Positions 56,924 through 64,000 of a stretch of 64,000 bases of DNA are shown one piece after another. Where the stretch lies: NCBI RefSeq assembly GCF_002214545.1, contig NZ_CP015105.1, positions 1,612,001 to 1,676,000 on the forward strand, read 5' to 3'. The position numbers and the translations under genes were made by a program. This DNA is from Thermococcus thioreducens (GTDB lineage Archaea > Methanobacteriota_B > Thermococci > Thermococcales > Thermococcaceae). Every line of letters starts with the position of its first letter. Within the stretch, counting starts at the first letter, position 1. Below the pieces are notes generated by a model. The model worked only from the letters and a program-made list of their open reading frames with translations. It was not told the DNA's origin and did no database searches.

Positions 56924-57685
56924 CTAAAGAGCATCTTTAAGCGCCCTAACTATTCCGGCCACCTCTTCCTGGCTTTCGGTGAGCTTGAGGAACACATCTT
57001 CAAGGCTCTCCTCGTGGGCGAACTCTTTGAGCTGCTCCACAGTTCCTTCAGCAATTATCTCACCGTTGTATATGACACCAACGCGGTCGCATATCGTCTC
57101 GGCCAGAGCCAGCACGTGGGTGGAGAAGACTATGCTCCTCCCCTCCTCTCGGAATTGGAGCAGAAGCTCCCTCAGGATCCTCGCGCTCTTGGGGTCGAGA
57201 CCGTTCATGGCCTCATCCAGGACAAGAACCTTCGGGTCGTGGAGCATGGCACTTATCAGGGAGATTTTCTGTCTGGTTCCAAAGCTGAGGGAACCTATCA
57301 TCTCGCCGAGGTATTTTTCTATTCCGAACGCCCTCACAAAGGTCTCCACGCGCTCCTGGAGCTCCTCCTTCGGAATCCTCCTCACGCTTCCGATGAAGTT
57401 GAAGAACTCAACCGGTGTGAGGCTCTCGTAGAGGACCGGCGTTTCCGGGACGTAGCCGGCTATCCTCTTCACCCGGAGGGGGTCCTTGGAAACGTCTATC
57501 CCGTTGACGATGGCCTTTCCTCCGCTTGGGGGAATTATTCCGGCCAGGATTTTCATCGTCGTGCTCTTTCCGCTCCCGTTGGGGCCGAGAAGGCCGTAAA
57601 TTTCGCCGTCTTTGACCGTGAAGGTTATCCCTTTGAGTGCCACGTTAGAACCGAACCTCTTGACGAGGCCTTCGACCTCTATCAT
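56924..57685 (-). CDS. ABC transporter ATPase
   Basis: Walker A GPNGSGKST, signature SLSFGTRQKISLISAML (degenerate LSGGQ), Walker B VLVLDEAMNGLDP and switch STHVLALAE are visible in this 253-residue ABC-2 type ATPase. The FG-T in place of GGQ is frequent in this exporter group. It works with the membrane protein encoded downstream. Confidence 0.9.
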   Translation of the reverse strand: MIEVEGLVKRFGSNVALKGITFTVKDGEIYGLLGPNGSGKSTTMKILAGIIPPSGGKAIVNGIDVSKDPLRVKRIAGYVPETPVLYESLTPVEFFNFIGSVRRIPKEELQERVETFVRAFGIEKYLGEMIGSLSFGTRQKISLISAMLHDPKVLVLDEAMNGLDPKSARILRELLLQFREEGRSIVFSTHVLALAETICDRVGVIYNGEIIAEGTVEQLKEFAHEESLEDVFLKLTESQEEVAGIVRALKDAL

Positions 57686-57780: not shown

Positions 57781-57861
57781 GGGGGCATAATTGGGTAAAG
57801 TCCAAGCCGTTTGGAGCTATCTTTCCTTTTCTGCCCCGGGTTTGGAGCGGGAGGGAAACTC

Positions 57862-60411
57862 ATGAGAAAAACCGTTAAGCTCTTACTCCTTACATTATTG
57901 AGTGTCATGGTGCTCGTGGGCGGATGTATCGGGAACACCCCCTCCTCCACGGGCACAATGACTGGAAATTCGGAGGAAGATGACGGTGGGACAACCTCAA
58001 CGATGGAAAGCTCAACAACCGAGACGGGAACAACCGAAACTGTAACCGAGACCCAAACATCCACAGATACAGGCACTGAAGCTCCAACCGAAACACCACC
58101 CAATGAAAGCCTAAGCTACGACGAGGACGGAAACATCCTCTGCGAAGGTGAAGACCCTGACCTCGGCTGTGAAGCCGGAGAGACCAACGGGAACGGAACA
58201 GGGCCTGGGTTCTCGCTCAACTTCGACTTCAACGTGAGCCTAACTCCAGTAATAGTGCCGGTGACGATGGTTAAGGCCAACTTCAGCTACGCCGGGCCGA
58301 TAAGCTCGATGGCCTTCTCGCCGGGAGAAAGGGACGTTATCGACTGGGTGAGCGTTCTCACCTCAAGCACCGATCCAGGGAAGAACCTCGTCTTCACGAT
58401 AAAGTTCGCCGACAAAGAACTGGCGGAGACATACGTCCATCCTGCGGCCTTCTACAATATAGTGACGGGGAAAAAGATACCCCTTGAGCCAACCGTTCTG
58501 TACTTAGATGAGGGGAGCGAGTTCGGAAGGATGTGGGAGCTCCATCTTTACAGCGGTGGATTCACCCTTTACGAGATAGGAAAAAACGGTCCAGTTGAGC
58601 TTTCAAGCGGAGAGGTTAGCGTCAAGGACTCCTCCGTGAGCTTCACAATCGAGAACTTCAGGGACGTTTTCCCGAGAAGGGTCTATATGCGCATCAGGGC
58701 CGTCCCCATGGGCGACGGAGATGTCGTGCGCTACCCCGGCAACGGGGTCTTCGTCATCGAGTACGAGAGGGGGTGGATTGACTACACCAGTTTTTCCTAC
58801 TACGGGGAGCCCGGCGGGAAGCTCAGACTAAGCGCAAAGGCCCACTCCTACGACCTGAGCCTGAGCCTCTACTTCGAGAGTGAAGAGGAACTGAGGAAAC
58901 TGCCGGTGTTCTTCTACATCGACAGCACCGACAACGGAAAGGCCGACTGGATTGCATACATCTATGCTGACCACTACATCCTGGAGGACTCAAACGGAAA
59001 CGTCTACCGCAAGGGAAAAGCCTTTGCGGACGGCAACGTCCTCAACGTCACCCTGGAGAACATTTTCAGCCTGATCCCCTGGAGATACTTCAGGGGATGG
59101 TTCGGTAATTCACGGCTCAGATTCCCTGCGAAGGCAAACCTCTGGTTCAACGCGACCGAAGGGTTTTCGGTGGAGAAGGACGTTGAGAAATACTTGGTCA
59201 TTGTGGTGGAGGATGTCTACATAAAGGGCAACAAAGACCGGGCTGAGGGCGAGATACAGCTCGTCTCGTGGGCCTATGGCGTTGACTGGCCGGAGGGCAA
59301 GGTCATGCCCATCAACTACAGTCCGATATACACCTTCGGCTACCCGGTTGCCCACTGGGTTGAAGCGGAGGACAGAAGCAGGCTGCTCTACCACGACGAT
59401 AAGGCCATCAGCCTTGACTACGCCTTCATAAACGGCTACCCGGTCTTGGCGATGCCCCTTGAAGAGGCAGAGAAGTACAGGCTGATAGCGTTTAAAACGG
59501 CCGCGTGGGACAGGGACGAGCCGGGCGAATACGTGAGCATGGGTGCGGGATTCCTCATGGATACCGCCATAGGCTTCGCGACTGGAGAGCTAAGCACCGC
59601 CCTCAAATACGCCTACACAGGGGGCATGTGGACTAACCAACTCATAAGCGGAAAGAGCGCCACGGACGTCTGGGGAGAGGTTTTCAACTGGCTCGTTGGG
59701 GCCGAGCCGGACATGGTCGGGGTTTCTTCCTACGCTTTACCGCCGAACTCCGCCGAGTTCAGTAAGGGGGCCCTCGTAGAGGCCCCGTCAGAGGATGGAA
59801 ACATGCTCGTCACGTACCTCCTCTACACGGTCGAGGTGCCGAGGACGCTCAGGTACGCATCTCTAAGCTCCCAGCTCCATTCAGTGGACTTCACGAAGGA
59901 CACCGAGATAGGGCCGGACGAATACTACATCTACGCCCGCGCCTGTGCTGGTTTTGCCGAGGCGAGCGGTGTGAACGTTCCCCAGGACTTCCATAAGCTT
60001 GAGATAACGTCGATGGCACCTGTGGGAAGTGCCTACTCCTACCCCAAACTTAGAACGCAGGGCGGTGAACTGACCTATGACGTTGAGTCATGCATGCCCT
60101 CAGGAAAGCTGGAGCACGGGGCAACTTCAAAGGAATCACTCTTCCTCTACAAGGAACTCCTGAAGAGAGACAGGGCCGACGTCCCCTTCCTGTACATGGA
60201 GTACTCCGGCTGGGAGCAGGATTCAGGAAAGTGGGGCAACGACGACCCCATGGGGAACGTGGGGATAACCCTGCTCTTCGATGGCGAATACTTCGACTGG
60301 GACCAAACATCGGCGATTCCGACCAAGGCCTTTGGTCTGAGCTTCAACGTCTGCGGCGTTTCCGGAGGCTGTTCGCGGGTCAGTCTGTGGGCGGACGTCG
60401 AGGAGGGTTAG
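57862..60411 (+). CDS. Large surface lipoprotein, function unknown
   Basis: ATG 57862, behind GGGAGGGAAACTC, starts a signal with lipobox VLVGGC (Cys19). A Thr/Ser/Glu-rich linker (residues 20-90, many TT and ETGT words) precedes about 750 residues rich in Tyr, Gly and Asp, with no domain I can name. FYIDSTDNGKADWIAYIY suggests a calcium-loop-like or beta-sandwich fold. Only a few cysteines occur after the anchor, two near FNVCGVSGGCSRVSL at the end. It is probably displayed on the cell surface. T-rich TCTCTTTTATTT follows the stop. Confidence 0.7.
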   Translation: MRKTVKLLLLTLLSVMVLVGGCIGNTPSSTGTMTGNSEEDDGGTTSTMESSTTETGTTETVTETQTSTDTGTEAPTETPPNESLSYDEDGNILCEGEDPDLGCEAGETNGNGTGPGFSLNFDFNVSLTPVIVPVTMVKANFSYAGPISSMAFSPGERDVIDWVSVLTSSTDPGKNLVFTIKFADKELAETYVHPAAFYNIVTGKKIPLEPTVLYLDEGSEFGRMWELHLYSGGFTLYEIGKNGPVELSSGEVSVKDSSVSFTIENFRDVFPRRVYMRIRAVPMGDGDVVRYPGNGVFVIEYERGWIDYTSFSYYGEPGGKLRLSAKAHSYDLSLSLYFESEEELRKLPVFFYIDSTDNGKADWIAYIYADHYILEDSNGNVYRKGKAFADGNVLNVTLENIFSLIPWRYFRGWFGNSRLRFPAKANLWFNATEGFSVEKDVEKYLVIVVEDVYIKGNKDRAEGEIQLVSWAYGVDWPEGKVMPINYSPIYTFGYPVAHWVEAEDRSRLLYHDDKAISLDYAFINGYPVLAMPLEEAEKYRLIAFKTAAWDRDEPGEYVSMGAGFLMDTAIGFATGELSTALKYAYTGGMWTNQLISGKSATDVWGEVFNWLVGAEPDMVGVSSYALPPNSAEFSKGALVEAPSEDGNMLVTYLLYTVEVPRTLRYASLSSQLHSVDFTKDTEIGPDEYYIYARACAGFAEASGVNVPQDFHKLEITSMAPVGSAYSYPKLRTQGGELTYDVESCMPSGKLEHGATSKESLFLYKELLKRDRADVPFLYMEYSGWEQDSGKWGNDDPMGNVGITLLFDGEYFDWDQTSAIPTKAFGLSFNVCGVSGGCSRVSLWADVEEG

Positions 60412-60424
60412 TCTCTTTTATTTC
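60412..60424 (+). terminator. T-rich terminator after the lipoprotein gene
   Basis: GTCTCTTTTATTTCC immediately follows the stop at 60411, a plausible archaeal oligo-T stop. It lies in the six-base gap to the convergent helicase-like gene. Confidence 0.4.
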
Positions 60425-63363
60425 CTCCAGTCATGTCCCTTCCACACGTTGGGGAGGTAGAAGCGGTTTTTCCTCAGCCGTTCCTCAACCATCGCCATTC
60501 TTAACTTTTCTTGAACTGGAACGTCTCTTCTGCCCGTTGTCATTCCGAAAACCGGATGTATAGCCAGTATGCCGAAGTTTTCGACTCCCTTATCCTTTTC
60601 CACAACCTTAACGGGAATCTCTGTGTATCTTGATTCTCCAAAGAAGAGTCTCTTCAGGGGGGACTCTATTCTGTGGGGCATTTCATCGACGTGGAGGGGA
60701 TACAGGAATGGCACAAGCAGGAGTGATGAGTAGCCCGCGAGAATGTAGCTAGGACGAAGAGCTTTTTCGAGCTTTCTAGCAAGCTCGTGCTCGTTTTTCA
60801 CCGAAGACAGATACTCGTCAATCTTGGGAACTAAGTTTCGGAGGAGTTCTGCACTTCTCCTGTACTTTCGGTCCGCAAGAACCTCCTGGAAGCGTTCAAC
60901 GTGGTCAAACTGGACCCTCAGGGGTAGCACTTCGAGGGTGAAATTGTTGGCCACGTATTCTCCGGTTATCCTGTGGACCCTGAAGGGAACCGGAAGCTCC
61001 CAATCCTCACTCAGGGCAAATTCAAACTTGAAAACCGGCCTAAGGGAAAATCCAGAGGCCATAAATAGACGTTTAAGGGACGGATAGTAGTCCCTCATGA
61101 AAGCCTCGAATGAAACCTCCCTGCTCTCTCCCGGCTTCATGTTCCCTCCAGAAGGCTTGAAGAAACGCCCACCCCCCGAGAACATCGGCAGTCTGATGTG
61201 AAAGTCCCTGTTCAGAAGCAGGTTTCTGATGAACCCTACGAGTGAAAGGTAAGCCACCCCCTCTGAGTAGTTTTCGTCGTTTCCCGTCAGTCCAACAAAG
61301 ATTACGTGCTTCTTTCCTCCCTCATACCCTCTGAGTCGTTTTATCACCTGACGATACAGTTCTATCCCATATGCGTTGTTGTCGTGCCTGTAGCCGGGGT
61401 AGGGGGAGATAAACACAAGAACGTCGTGGTTTTCGAGGTTCACACCAAAGGCCAAGCTTGATGTTCCAACAACGTTGCCCCCGAGTTCCTCGTTGGAAAG
61501 ACCAATCTCTGAGTGGACTGGTGTTGTGGGGTACCCTCTTTCCACGAGGAACTCTGTTAAGTCATCGACGTAAAGACGGTTGTCCACGTAGAACACGACT
61601 TTCCCGTCTTTTAACAAGTTTTCAAGATTTACTTCCCTCTCCCCCAGAAGTTCGCTGGCACCAGCTATGACTGCGTTCCAGTCCGGAATTTGGGAATGGA
61701 CACCCAGACCCATCGCGTAGTATTCGAGGGGGAAATCGAGATGGATGCGGTAGTAAACAGCCCTTATCGAGTTCACTTTGAACTCTCTAACTGCGGGGTC
61801 TTCCTCAACCCTGGACACGAGGACCTCAAGGGGCGTGTAAACCATTCCTCTGCTCGAGAGATGTTTCTTAAAGGCATCCACGTATAGGCCTGGGTGCGTC
61901 ATGGAAGCGTCGAGAATGGCTACCTTAGTCCCGCGAGGGTTTCGGGAGAATGTTCTAAGAAAACTGAGCGTGCTCTCAACGGCCCCGGCTCCTGAGTTGG
62001 TGAACTCGTCGAATACCACTAGGTCGGTATACTTGAGCACACTTTTCCAGCTCTCTGGATTTAGATACTGGAACGCCTGGGAAGTTGCGAGGACAACCCC
62101 CGGTTCTTCAGTGCGAAGAGACCTTAGAAGTTTCCTAGATGCCTGATAAGTCCCTGTTTTAGGTGCTTCAAGGGTCTCAACATAGGTTTTTCTCTTTTTC
62201 AGCTTCCTTCGGGCACTTGATGATACAAGGAGAGTTTTTATTCCGTTTCTTTCTAGTTTTCTCTTGGTTTCGCTTAGAATGTGCAGGCGGGGGGATATAA
62301 AAATGATGAGGTCGAATTCCTCTAGATACTTCATTAGGTCCTTTTCATGCCTGAGTCTTCTCTTCATAACTCCGGTATAGAATGGCCTCGGCGTTTTAAT
62401 GTGCCCCATGTTTTGCTGTATTGGTCTTTTGTCCCACCTGAGCTGGATCCCCTTATCCTTGCTTTTCTTGTGGAAGTAAAAGGTCCCGCTTGTCTCGTCG
62501 TACTTTATGAATGCATTTCCGGTGTAGAAACCGTCGAGAATTTCCCTGGCATGCTCCATGAAAGACTCAGGCATCATCTTTTCCAGCAGTTCAAGTAGCT
62601 TGGAGTAGTATTCGCCTATGGCAGAGAAGGAGCCGAGTTCTAGTATTGAAATCCCAAGCGGGAATACAACGACGGCCTCAATTGGAAATCTGTCGAATTT
62701 CCGCGCATAGTTGAGAACCTTTGCATACTTGCCCGCGGCGTTATAGAGGGTTTTGAAACTGTATCCACTAATCCTCTTCACCCTCGTCAGAAGTTCTTCC
62801 ATTGAATACGTCTCAAAACTAACGCTCCAGGCAACGTTGGTCAAGTCTGCGTCAAAGTAGCCGAACAGCACCTTGAAGTCCCCAATGGCAACTGGGGTTC
62901 TTCCATTGAAAGCTATAAAATCTGGATACAGATAACCAAGGGAATATCCAACAGGGGCCTCTAAAAGGAACGTTTCGTACCGCTCACCTAAAATCTTTCC
63001 CGTTCTGTACCCCATCTGAAGGAGAGACAAAATGTTGGCAACATCCGTGTTTGCTAGGAGGGACCCGTCTATGGAGAACTTGAGGGCCCTCTTGACCTGT
63101 TTCTTCCTAAATACTTCAACGATTCTGGAAATTCTTGCATCCCTATCCAGACCATTTTCAAGAACGTAGTTGTACAGGGGCAGTGATTCCCCCGCAATCT
63201 CCCTCGCCATTTCTAAGAGGGTATCGTCTCCTTCAAGGAGGGCGTCTTCAAAATCCTCCACGTCGTAACCGTCGGGTAGTTGGTAGGCCTTTGAAGCAAG
63301 GCCCGCTTTTACTCCAAGCTCAAATGCCTCCCCATAAAGTACCGTTAAAGGATTCTCCTTCAT
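60418..63363 (-). CDS. Fused PD-(D/E)XK nuclease and SF2 helicase-like protein
   Basis: Residues 130-240 show a PD-(D/E)XK nuclease core: YPDFIAF with Asp148 and, 13 residues on, IGDFKV with Asp162 and Lys164. Residues 340-700 resemble an SF2 helicase: LIIFISPRLHILSE (motif Ia), VVFDEFTNSGAGA (motif II, 452-455), ILDASM (III), GTSSLAFGVNL (V, 633-643) and YRQVIKRLRG (VI). The Walker A lysine loop that should lie near 320-345 (around TPRPFYTGVMKRR) is not recognisable. Residues 700-981 are unassigned. The gene overlaps its upstream partner by four bases. It is AT-richer than the neighbouring core genes. Confidence 0.7.
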   Translation of the reverse strand: MKENPLTVLYGEAFELGVKAGLASKAYQLPDGYDVEDFEDALLEGDDTLLEMAREIAGESLPLYNYVLENGLDRDARISRIVEVFRKKQVKRALKFSIDGSLLANTDVANILSLLQMGYRTGKILGERYETFLLEAPVGYSLGYLYPDFIAFNGRTPVAIGDFKVLFGYFDADLTNVAWSVSFETYSMEELLTRVKRISGYSFKTLYNAAGKYAKVLNYARKFDRFPIEAVVVFPLGISILELGSFSAIGEYYSKLLELLEKMMPESFMEHAREILDGFYTGNAFIKYDETSGTFYFHKKSKDKGIQLRWDKRPIQQNMGHIKTPRPFYTGVMKRRLRHEKDLMKYLEEFDLIIFISPRLHILSETKRKLERNGIKTLLVSSSARRKLKKRKTYVETLEAPKTGTYQASRKLLRSLRTEEPGVVLATSQAFQYLNPESWKSVLKYTDLVVFDEFTNSGAGAVESTLSFLRTFSRNPRGTKVAILDASMTHPGLYVDAFKKHLSSRGMVYTPLEVLVSRVEEDPAVREFKVNSIRAVYYRIHLDFPLEYYAMGLGVHSQIPDWNAVIAGASELLGEREVNLENLLKDGKVVFYVDNRLYVDDLTEFLVERGYPTTPVHSEIGLSNEELGGNVVGTSSLAFGVNLENHDVLVFISPYPGYRHDNNAYGIELYRQVIKRLRGYEGGKKHVIFVGLTGNDENYSEGVAYLSLVGFIRNLLLNRDFHIRLPMFSGGGRFFKPSGGNMKPGESREVSFEAFMRDYYPSLKRLFMASGFSLRPVFKFEFALSEDWELPVPFRVHRITGEYVANNFTLEVLPLRVQFDHVERFQEVLADRKYRRSAELLRNLVPKIDEYLSSVKNEHELARKLEKALRPSYILAGYSSLLLVPFLYPLHVDEMPHRIESPLKRLFFGESRYTEIPVKVVEKDKGVENFGILAIHPVFGMTTGRRDVPVQEKLRMAMVEERLRKNRFYLPNVWKGHDWRK

Positions 63364-64000
63364 TCCACAACCCCTCCCAGGAGCAGGGACGGCCGAATGA
63401 CCTTTCTCGAAACATCAGGATAAGGAGTATAGAACAGACGCTTCGTTCCGGCCAAGCTAACCCCTCCCTTCTCATCGGCCAATCCCAATGTAAACAGCAT
63501 CTCCTCGTCTGAGAGAACGCCCTCCGAAAATAGCATCATCAGGGGATGCCTGTAGATGCGGGACTCGGAATTCTCCTGGAGGTCCTTTGTTACAAAAACC
63601 CGGGCGTTATGTCCCCCAACCTCAAGCACCGCCAGCCACGACCGGTAATGCTTTTTGATGCCCATAGCTCTGTCGAACTCCTCCTTCGATAGAACCAGCC
63701 CGTCCCAGTCCACGATTATGGCGGAAGGAGGCAATCCACTGAGGGTCTCCCCAATTTCGACGTTCCTGAGGCTCTGCACATGCACCAAGTGAACCCCATC
63801 CTCTTTAACAGCATTTTCAAGGTCTTCAAATATCCGGGGGTGACTGTCGAGGGCCTTCTTCGGATTGTCCCTCCTGTATATTATCCTTTCAGGGAGGAGT
63901 CTAACGCGCTTTCCGTCCAAAAGGCCGTATGTGGAAGTTTTCAGGAGCCTGATGTAGTAGTTTGAGCTACTCGTTGAATCTCCTGCCCTGTAAAGGGACC
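63360..64000 (-). CDS. Partner of the nuclease-helicase, partial (5' end outside window)
   Basis: The frame is open from the window edge (…SNYYIRLLKTSTYGLLDGK…) to a stop at 63360-63362, so at least 212 residues of a longer protein are seen. I do not recognise it. Visible pieces are RLLPERIIYRRDNPKKALD, PPSAIIVDWDGLVLSKEEF and RIYRHPLMMLFSEGVLSDEE. The first piece is faintly like the PERIIxxRDG strand of PIWI domains, but the other PIWI marks are not evident. The ATGA overlap with the nuclease-helicase gene indicates joint translation. Confidence 0.6.
   Translation of the reverse strand, partial: SLYRAGDSTSSSNYYIRLLKTSTYGLLDGKRVRLLPERIIYRRDNPKKALDSHPRIFEDLENAVKEDGVHLVHVQSLRNVEIGETLSGLPPSAIIVDWDGLVLSKEEFDRAMGIKKHYRSWLAVLEVGGHNARVFVTKDLQENSESRIYRHPLMMLFSEGVLSDEEMLFTLGLADEKGGVSLAGTKRLFYTPYPDVSRKVIRPSLLLGGVVE

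What the first reader, a model, noticed from the sequence alone, without database searches (positions are those of the whole stretch)
60418..64000. Nuclease-helicase fusion without Walker A, coupled to an unknown partner
The sequence shows a 981-residue protein with a PD-(D/E)XK site (D148, D162-F-K164) joined to an SF2-like module that keeps DEFT, GTSSLAFG and Q-x3-R-x-R-G but has no visible GKT/GKS loop. Its start overlaps the stop of a second gene by four bases, and both are AT-richer than the core genes around. Nuclease plus helicase in a two-gene unit is typical of defence or repair modules. I know no named system with this architecture.
Basis: partly seen in the sequence, partly recalled or inferred. 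Interest (0 to 1): 0.8.

Follow-up and report, generated by a model that had tools for sequence, protein, structure and literature searches.

The report
Argonaute-like and nuclease-helicase gene pair
A mobile two-gene cassette of heat-loving archaea pairs an unrecognised Argonaute-like protein with a DNA-cutting helicase, probably a guided anti-virus system, and the copy in this genome has lost the helicase's ATP-binding loop through one small deletion.

Summary
The genes are real. The 981-codon gene (60418-63363, minus strand) overlaps its partner by four bases (ATGA). It has a PD-(D/E)XK site and SF2 helicase motifs.

The missing Walker A is not a family trait. All seven homologues found in Thermococcales keep 'ASDQGxGK[N/T]'. 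The window gene carries an 84-bp in-frame deletion that removes exactly that loop; a relative with 99% protein identity retains it.

The partner, cut off by the window, is 808 aa. No Pfam, NCBIfam, PADLOC or PDB sequence search recognises it. Its AlphaFold2 model (pTM 0.81) matches Argonautes in all 25 best PDB hits (best E 2.4e-5, but low TM-scores). The PIWI catalytic aspartates appear to be lost.

The two genes always occur together (8 of 115 genomes searched). They sit at three different loci, and at one of these the cassette lies exactly between two stop codons that are adjacent in an empty allele.

Best reading: a horizontally mobile defence pair in which a catalytically dead Argonaute-like protein finds the target and a Cas3-like helicase-nuclease destroys it. 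It resembles bacterial pPIWI-RE operons in logic but failed the membership tests that could be run. The window's copy is probably crippled. Guide, target and defence activity are inferred, not shown.

The parts
60418..63363 (-). nuclease-helicase fusion gene, 981 codons (941-1018 aa in homologues)
62869..62925 (-). PD-(D/E)XK-type site: PDFIAF (147-152) ... DFKV (162-165); P147, D148, D162, F163 and K164 invariant in 7 homologues and kept here
62301..62302 (-). junction of the 84-bp in-frame deletion (FDLII|FISP) that removed 28 residues including the P-loop DASDQG[AV]GK[N/T]; a single-base substitution lies at the joint
61990..62010 (-). SF2 motif II, DEFTNSG (EELTNSG in G005/G007)
61897..61914 (-). 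SF2 motif III, LDASMT
61444..61467 (-). SF2 motif V, GTSSLAFG
61327..61350 (-). SF2 motif VI, QVIKRLRG
63360..64000 (-). C-terminal part of the Argonaute-like partner gene (full gene G000:C1:1675360-1677786, 808 aa; it would end at about window 65786); the window part covers the PIWI/RNase H-like region
60412..60417 (.). 3' border of the cassette: 6 bp between the stop of the nuclease-helicase gene and the stop of the convergent 866-aa-family gene (57811-60411, +); in an empty allele (G034) this stop lies next to the stop of the Dph6-like gene

Best explanation
The locus is a self-contained, horizontally mobile two-gene cassette. Gene 1 encodes an extremely divergent Argonaute/PIWI-like protein whose PIWI domain has probably lost its catalytic acids; it is inferred to bind a short nucleic-acid guide and find a complementary invader. 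Gene 2 encodes a PD-(D/E)XK nuclease fused to an SF2 helicase; it is inferred to be recruited to the bound target, to unwind or move along the DNA with ATP, and to cut it, as Cas3 does for Cascade and as the separate REase and helicase are proposed to do for pPIWI-RE. In the window's genome an 84-bp in-frame deletion removed the P-loop of gene 2, so this copy has most likely lost the ATP-driven step and is decaying, though its nuclease site is intact. Shown here: sequence, deletion, co-occurrence, mobility, predicted fold. Inferred: guide binding, recruitment, target type, defence.
For: Both genes occur together in the same 8 of 115 phylum genomes and never alone. Their pairwise identities correlate at r = 0.99. 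The cassette sits at three different loci: Dph6-like/866-aa gene, infB and proC. At the first locus an empty allele exists with the two flanking stops adjacent. Other genomes carry a PIN gene, a permease-Usp gene or a lipoprotein-like gene in the same spot. G000 and G014 share most of the cassette at 93-99.8% against about 80-88% around it. The partner model (pLDDT 79.5, pTM 0.81) matches only Argonautes in its 25 best PDB hits, including TtAgo, SPARTA, SPARDA, AGO2 and others, E from 2.4e-5; the best named viral-library hits are RNase H. The strands expected to carry the two catalytic aspartates lack them. The P-loop is intact in all 7 homologues; ResIII is matched by 7 of 7 members, best E 8.4e-8; the fold is SF2.
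Against: TM-scores to Argonautes are low (0.18-0.25 by query, at most 0.39 by target) and the model rests on 8 sequences. Profile-profile comparison with Thermococcales Argonautes is not significant. No Piwi (PF02171) or pPIWI-RE (PF13032) profile recognises the partner. No guide, target or phenotype is known. The neighbours are mostly housekeeping genes, not a defence island. The nuclease assignment rests on motif and predicted secondary structure only.
Confidence: 0.55

Rival explanations
1. The partner is Argonaute-like in fold but does not use guides; the pair is a restriction-like or R-loop-sensing system that recognises a DNA or RNA structure directly.
For: Canonical 5'-phosphate pocket residues could not be mapped with confidence; only invariant N-V-Q-N and H-D-Y-Y-Y motifs are seen. 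The helicase model's best single PDB hit is DinG, a family proposed to act on R-loops (PMC3702460).
Against: The Argonaute fold is in most known cases a guide-binding fold (general knowledge). The DinG hit is not specific: many SF2 helicases score nearly as well.
Confidence: 0.2
2. The pair acts in repair or replication (for example R-loop or decatenation processing) rather than defence.
For: Nuclease-helicase fusions serve repair. The neighbours are housekeeping genes.
Against: Present in only 8 of 115 genomes of the phylum, at three insertion sites, with recent exchange between species: the pattern of accessory mobile genes.
Confidence: 0.12
3. The window's P-loop-less protein is a working variant: an ATP-independent, partner-directed nuclease.
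For: The deletion is exactly in frame; both genes stay open with no stop codons; no excess of amino-acid changes is seen in the window's lineage; the nuclease motif is intact.
Against: The deletion removes a core beta-loop-alpha unit of the first RecA-like domain. It is seen in one genome only and lies in a tract recently shared with G014, so it is too young for purifying selection to have been tested.
Confidence: 0.1
4. The deletion is an assembly or culture artefact and the natural gene has an intact P-loop.
For: Only one assembly was seen; reads were not available.
Against: Single finished contig; no long repeat that would collapse is visible beside the 84 bp, and the joint carries a substitution.
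Confidence: 0.15

Closest known systems
pPIWI-RE three-gene operons (REase + DinG helicase + PIWI-RE; Burroughs et al. 2013, PMC3702460)
   Same: A PIWI-like protein with an overlapping or close operon partner supplying a PD-(D/E)XK/REase and an SF2 helicase; patchy, mobile distribution.
   Different: Archaeal; REase and helicase fused in one protein; PIWI gene first, not last; no PF13032 match; no DinG Fe-S cysteines and no large helical insert; no extra helix after the first three strands in the model.
Inactive (short) pAgo systems with associated nucleases, such as SPARTA and SPARDA
   Same: Predicted dead PIWI with the effector in a neighbouring gene (principle stated in PMC2743648 and PMC6279821); structural hits to SPARTA and SPARDA.
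   Different: The partner is long (727-819 aa), is not seen by Piwi profiles, and its effector carries a helicase.
pAgo operons with PD-(D/E)XK-helicase orthogroups og_6, og_34 and og_37 (Ryazansky et al. 2018, PMC6299218)
   Same: Nuclease plus helicase proteins encoded beside pAgos.
   Different: Those pAgos are recognisable by sequence. The helicases there are UvrD or DEAD-box type; identity with the present family could not be tested.
Cas3 of type I CRISPR (PADLOC CAS-I-D Cas3 profile)
   Same: SF2 helicase joined to nuclease action; weak profile match in 5 of 7 members, best E 3.9e-5.
   Different: PD-(D/E)XK instead of HD nuclease; no cas genes or Cascade recognised beside it.
Canonical long pAgo of the same genome (G000:C1:1221679, identical to PDB 8jsi)
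   Same: Argonaute superfamily; same host.
   Different: Unrelated at sequence level, with catalytic residues. The window genome is the only one of the 8 carriers that also has such a pAgo.

Membership tests
pPIWI-RE system | sequence match to the RNaseH_pPIWI_RE profile (PF13032) | tested here: not met
   no match in the 8 carrier genomes even at E 10; none in hmmscan
pPIWI-RE system | three genes in the order REase, DinG helicase, PIWI | tested here: not met
   two genes, PIWI-like first, REase fused to helicase
pPIWI-RE system | DinG-type helicase with Fe-S cysteines and large helical insert | tested here: not met
   0 or 1 cysteine per protein, not conserved; mainly beta insert in the model
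pPIWI-RE system | extra alpha-helix after the first three strands of the PIWI domain, and the R/E pair | tested here: inconclusive
   only one helix follows the three strands in the model; the R/E pair cannot be mapped
Argonaute superfamily | MID-PIWI fold | tested here: met
   25 of 25 best PDB hits are Argonautes, E from 2.4e-5, prob 1.00 for the best; low TM-scores; a prediction, not a solved structure
Argonaute superfamily | sequence-level match to Piwi (PF02171) or to known pAgos | tested here: not met
Argonaute superfamily | catalytic DEDX tetrad (active members) | tested here: not met
   strands b1 and b4 lack aspartate in all 8 sequences under my strand assignment
Argonaute superfamily | guide binding | not testable with these tools
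   needs protein and nucleic-acid isolation
SF2 helicase | motifs I, II, III, V, VI | tested here: met
   in the 7 homologues: I [ASDQGxGK], II [DE]E[FL][TI], III DAS/DGS, V GTSS, VI QxxKRxRG; motif I deleted in the window copy
PD-(D/E)XK nuclease | D-x(n)-(D/E)-x-K in an alpha-beta core | tested here: met
   invariant P147-D148 and D162-F-K164 with matching predicted secondary structure; activity not tested
Cas3 | HD nuclease and association with type I cas genes | tested here: not met
   no HD nuclease match; no cas genes recognised among the flanking genes examined
RecB/AddAB | SF1 helicase with C-terminal nuclease | tested here: not met
   SF2 motifs and fold, N-terminal nuclease
Type III restriction (Res/Mod) | Mod methyltransferase partner | tested here: not met
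   partner has no methyltransferase match and an Argonaute-like fold

The most novel reading that the evidence does not exclude
A previously undescribed archaeal branch of the Argonaute superfamily, invisible to current profile libraries, works with a dedicated PD-(D/E)XK-helicase fusion as a two-gene guided DNA-destruction system: an Argonaute equivalent of Cascade plus Cas3.
Probability: 0.45. Interest if true: 0.8.

Novelty: new variant of a known kind. Interest (0 to 1): 0.64.

Why it matters
If right, Argonaute-based immunity in hyperthermophilic archaea includes a family that every annotation library used here misses, with a processive helicase-nuclease as effector. It would link pAgo/pPIWI-RE systems with Cas3-type target destruction and provide heat-stable parts. 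The window copy adds a natural P-loop deletion that separates the ATPase from the nuclease. It also shows that a striking 'missing motif' in one genome can be a private lesion.

Tried and rejected
Walker-A-less architecture as a family trait: rejected, all homologues keep the loop. Cas3, RecB/AddAB and Res/Mod membership: rejected on defining features. DinG clade: best single fold hit, but no Fe-S cysteines. pPIWI-RE membership: profile absent, different order and fusion.

Led nowhere: scans of genome contigs and viral contigs with A1-A4 and A6 and plasmid and phage tblastn found no relatives, so the distribution outside this phylum is unknown; pattern scans confirmed only by tblastn can miss distant relatives. 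Profile-profile alignment of the partner with 7 Thermococcales Argonautes was not significant. No pPIWI-RE sequences could be obtained for direct comparison. PDB sequence searches gave nothing for the partner or the nuclease domain. Literature searches in the held library turned up no description of this pair in the titles, abstracts and passages read; absence there is not proof.

Full report
What is there. The window lies at G000:C1:1612001-1676000 in a 2.07-Mb single-contig Thermococcales genome. The finding's gene is ORF 60418-63363 on the minus strand, 981 aa, sharing ATGA with the stop of the upstream gene. The upstream gene is cut by the window end; its full length is 808 aa (G000:C1:1675360-1677786). 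Both have GC 0.49-0.50 against about 0.54-0.59 for most neighbours.

The missing Walker A is a deletion. Searching 94 genomes of the order found homologues in seven further genomes. In five of these the alignment broke into two pieces at residues 338-358. Aligned proteins show why: all seven homologues carry '[DN]ASDQG[AV/I]GK[N/T]' between FDLII and FISPRLH, and the window protein lacks 28 residues there. At DNA level G000 and G014 differ by one 84-bp in-frame gap in this gene, with a single substitution at the joint. A profile of the intact family matches the window gene in two pieces, positions 1-351 and 379-997. So the absence is real in this sequence but private to it, and it removes the loop and first helix of the first RecA-like domain. 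The gene stays open, and changes polarised with G032 show no excess of amino-acid changes in the window's lineage.

Timing. G000 and G014 are mostly 80-88% identical around the locus, but 93-99.8% identical over most of the cassette, highest in the nuclease-helicase gene. I infer a recent recombination between the lineages, and a deletion after it.

The nuclease-helicase. P147-D148 and D162-F-K164 are invariant, with a matching strand-strand-helix pattern. SF2 motifs II, III, V and VI are conserved, with D to E at the first position of motif II in two genomes. Pfam ResIII is matched by 7 of 7 members, best E 8.4e-8. The structure model is of low overall confidence (pLDDT 65.6) but its helicase part matches SF2 helicases, DinG first at 1.5e-9 with many others close behind. 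There are no conserved cysteines, so no DinG iron-sulphur cluster. A type I-D Cas3 profile matches 5 of 7 members weakly, best E 3.9e-5.

The partner. No Pfam, PADLOC, NCBIfam or PDB sequence match was found; the few weak hits were chance-level. AlphaFold2 on the 8-sequence alignment gave pLDDT 79.5 and pTM 0.81. Foldseek against the PDB returned Argonautes as all of the 25 best hits: Thermus Argonaute at 2.4e-5, SPARTA, SPARDA, human AGO1 and AGO2, plant AGO10 and Pseudooceanicola Argonaute, with SIWI further down. The viral library gives RNase H as its best named hits. The C-terminal element order (three long strands, helix, strand, helix, strand) is that of the PIWI RNase H core. Under this assignment, strand 1 has no acidic residue at a conserved position and strand 4 ends in an invariant glutamine instead of the RDG aspartate, so the domain is predicted inactive. 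Caveats: TM-scores are low (0.18-0.25 by query, at most 0.39 by target), profile-profile comparison with seven Thermococcales Argonautes is not significant, and neither PF02171 nor PF13032 recognises it. The fold assignment is well supported; homology at the sequence level is not shown.

A mobile two-gene unit. Of 115 genomes of the phylum, the same 8 carry both genes and none carries only one. Pairwise identities of the two genes correlate at r = 0.99. The pair sits at three places: between a Dph6-like gene (PF01902) and an 866-aa-family gene (G000, G014, G032), downstream of infB (G043, G041, G005, G007), and next to proC (G079) (infB and proC named by eye from their sequences). At the first place many genomes without the pair have a gap of about 0.77 kb between the flanking markers, against 6.2-6.3 kb with it. 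In G034 the stop codons of the two flanking genes are 2 bp apart. Other genomes have a PIN-domain gene, an amino-acid permease-Usp gene or a lipoprotein-like gene in the same spot, so it is an insertion hot spot. A TATA-like element lies just upstream of the partner gene in most copies (by eye).

How it probably works. Shown: two co-inherited, mobile genes; a predicted dead Argonaute-like fold; an intact nuclease site and, in relatives, an intact helicase. Inferred: the Argonaute-like protein supplies target recognition, probably through a guide, and the nuclease-helicase is the effector that opens and cuts the DNA. This follows the rule that inactive pAgos sit beside nuclease genes (PMC2743648, PMC6279821) and the model proposed for pPIWI-RE operons (PMC3702460). 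In the window's genome the effector has probably lost ATP-driven action. That genome also has a canonical pAgo, identical to PDB 8jsi; it is the only carrier with both. This might relax selection on the cassette, which is speculation.

Known or new. PD-(D/E)XK-helicase proteins beside pAgos are known as orthogroups (PMC6299218), and pPIWI-RE joins REase, helicase and PIWI in three genes. The present pair differs in domain fusion, gene order, absence from the pPIWI-RE profile, archaeal host and lack of DinG features. A 2026 survey of archaeal defence (PMC12988326) relied on existing PADLOC/DefenseFinder models; PADLOC does not recognise these proteins beyond weak helicase matches, and the passages read did not mention this pair. 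I file it as a new variant of a known kind (Argonaute-type system with a nuclease partner), with function unproven.

Noticed in passing
L036 (G000:C1:1220179-1223985), minus strand: The window's genome also encodes a canonical long Argonaute identical to PDB 8jsi/8wd8; Piwi matches occur in 7 of 94 Thermococcales genomes, and only this one also has the cassette.
   Followed up: partly
window 60412-60417; L049, L052, L055-L061: The spot between the Dph6-like gene and the 866-aa-family gene is an insertion hot spot: empty, PIN-domain gene, permease-Usp gene, lipoprotein-like gene or the present cassette, depending on genome.
   Followed up: partly
L018, L021 (G043, G007): The infB gene beside the cassette has about 1141-1145 codons; in G043 it appears to carry an intein inside its GTPase P-loop region (sequence read by eye).
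   Followed up: no
L039, L040, L041: Three divergent Argonaute-like proteins (683-795 aa) in other Thermococcales genomes share only about 18-20% identity with the PfAgo-type proteins.
   Followed up: no
window 57811-60411 (+): An 866-aa threonine-rich, probably lipid-anchored protein without Pfam match, next to an ABC ATPase gene (56924-57685); homologues in many Thermococcus genomes.
   Followed up: no
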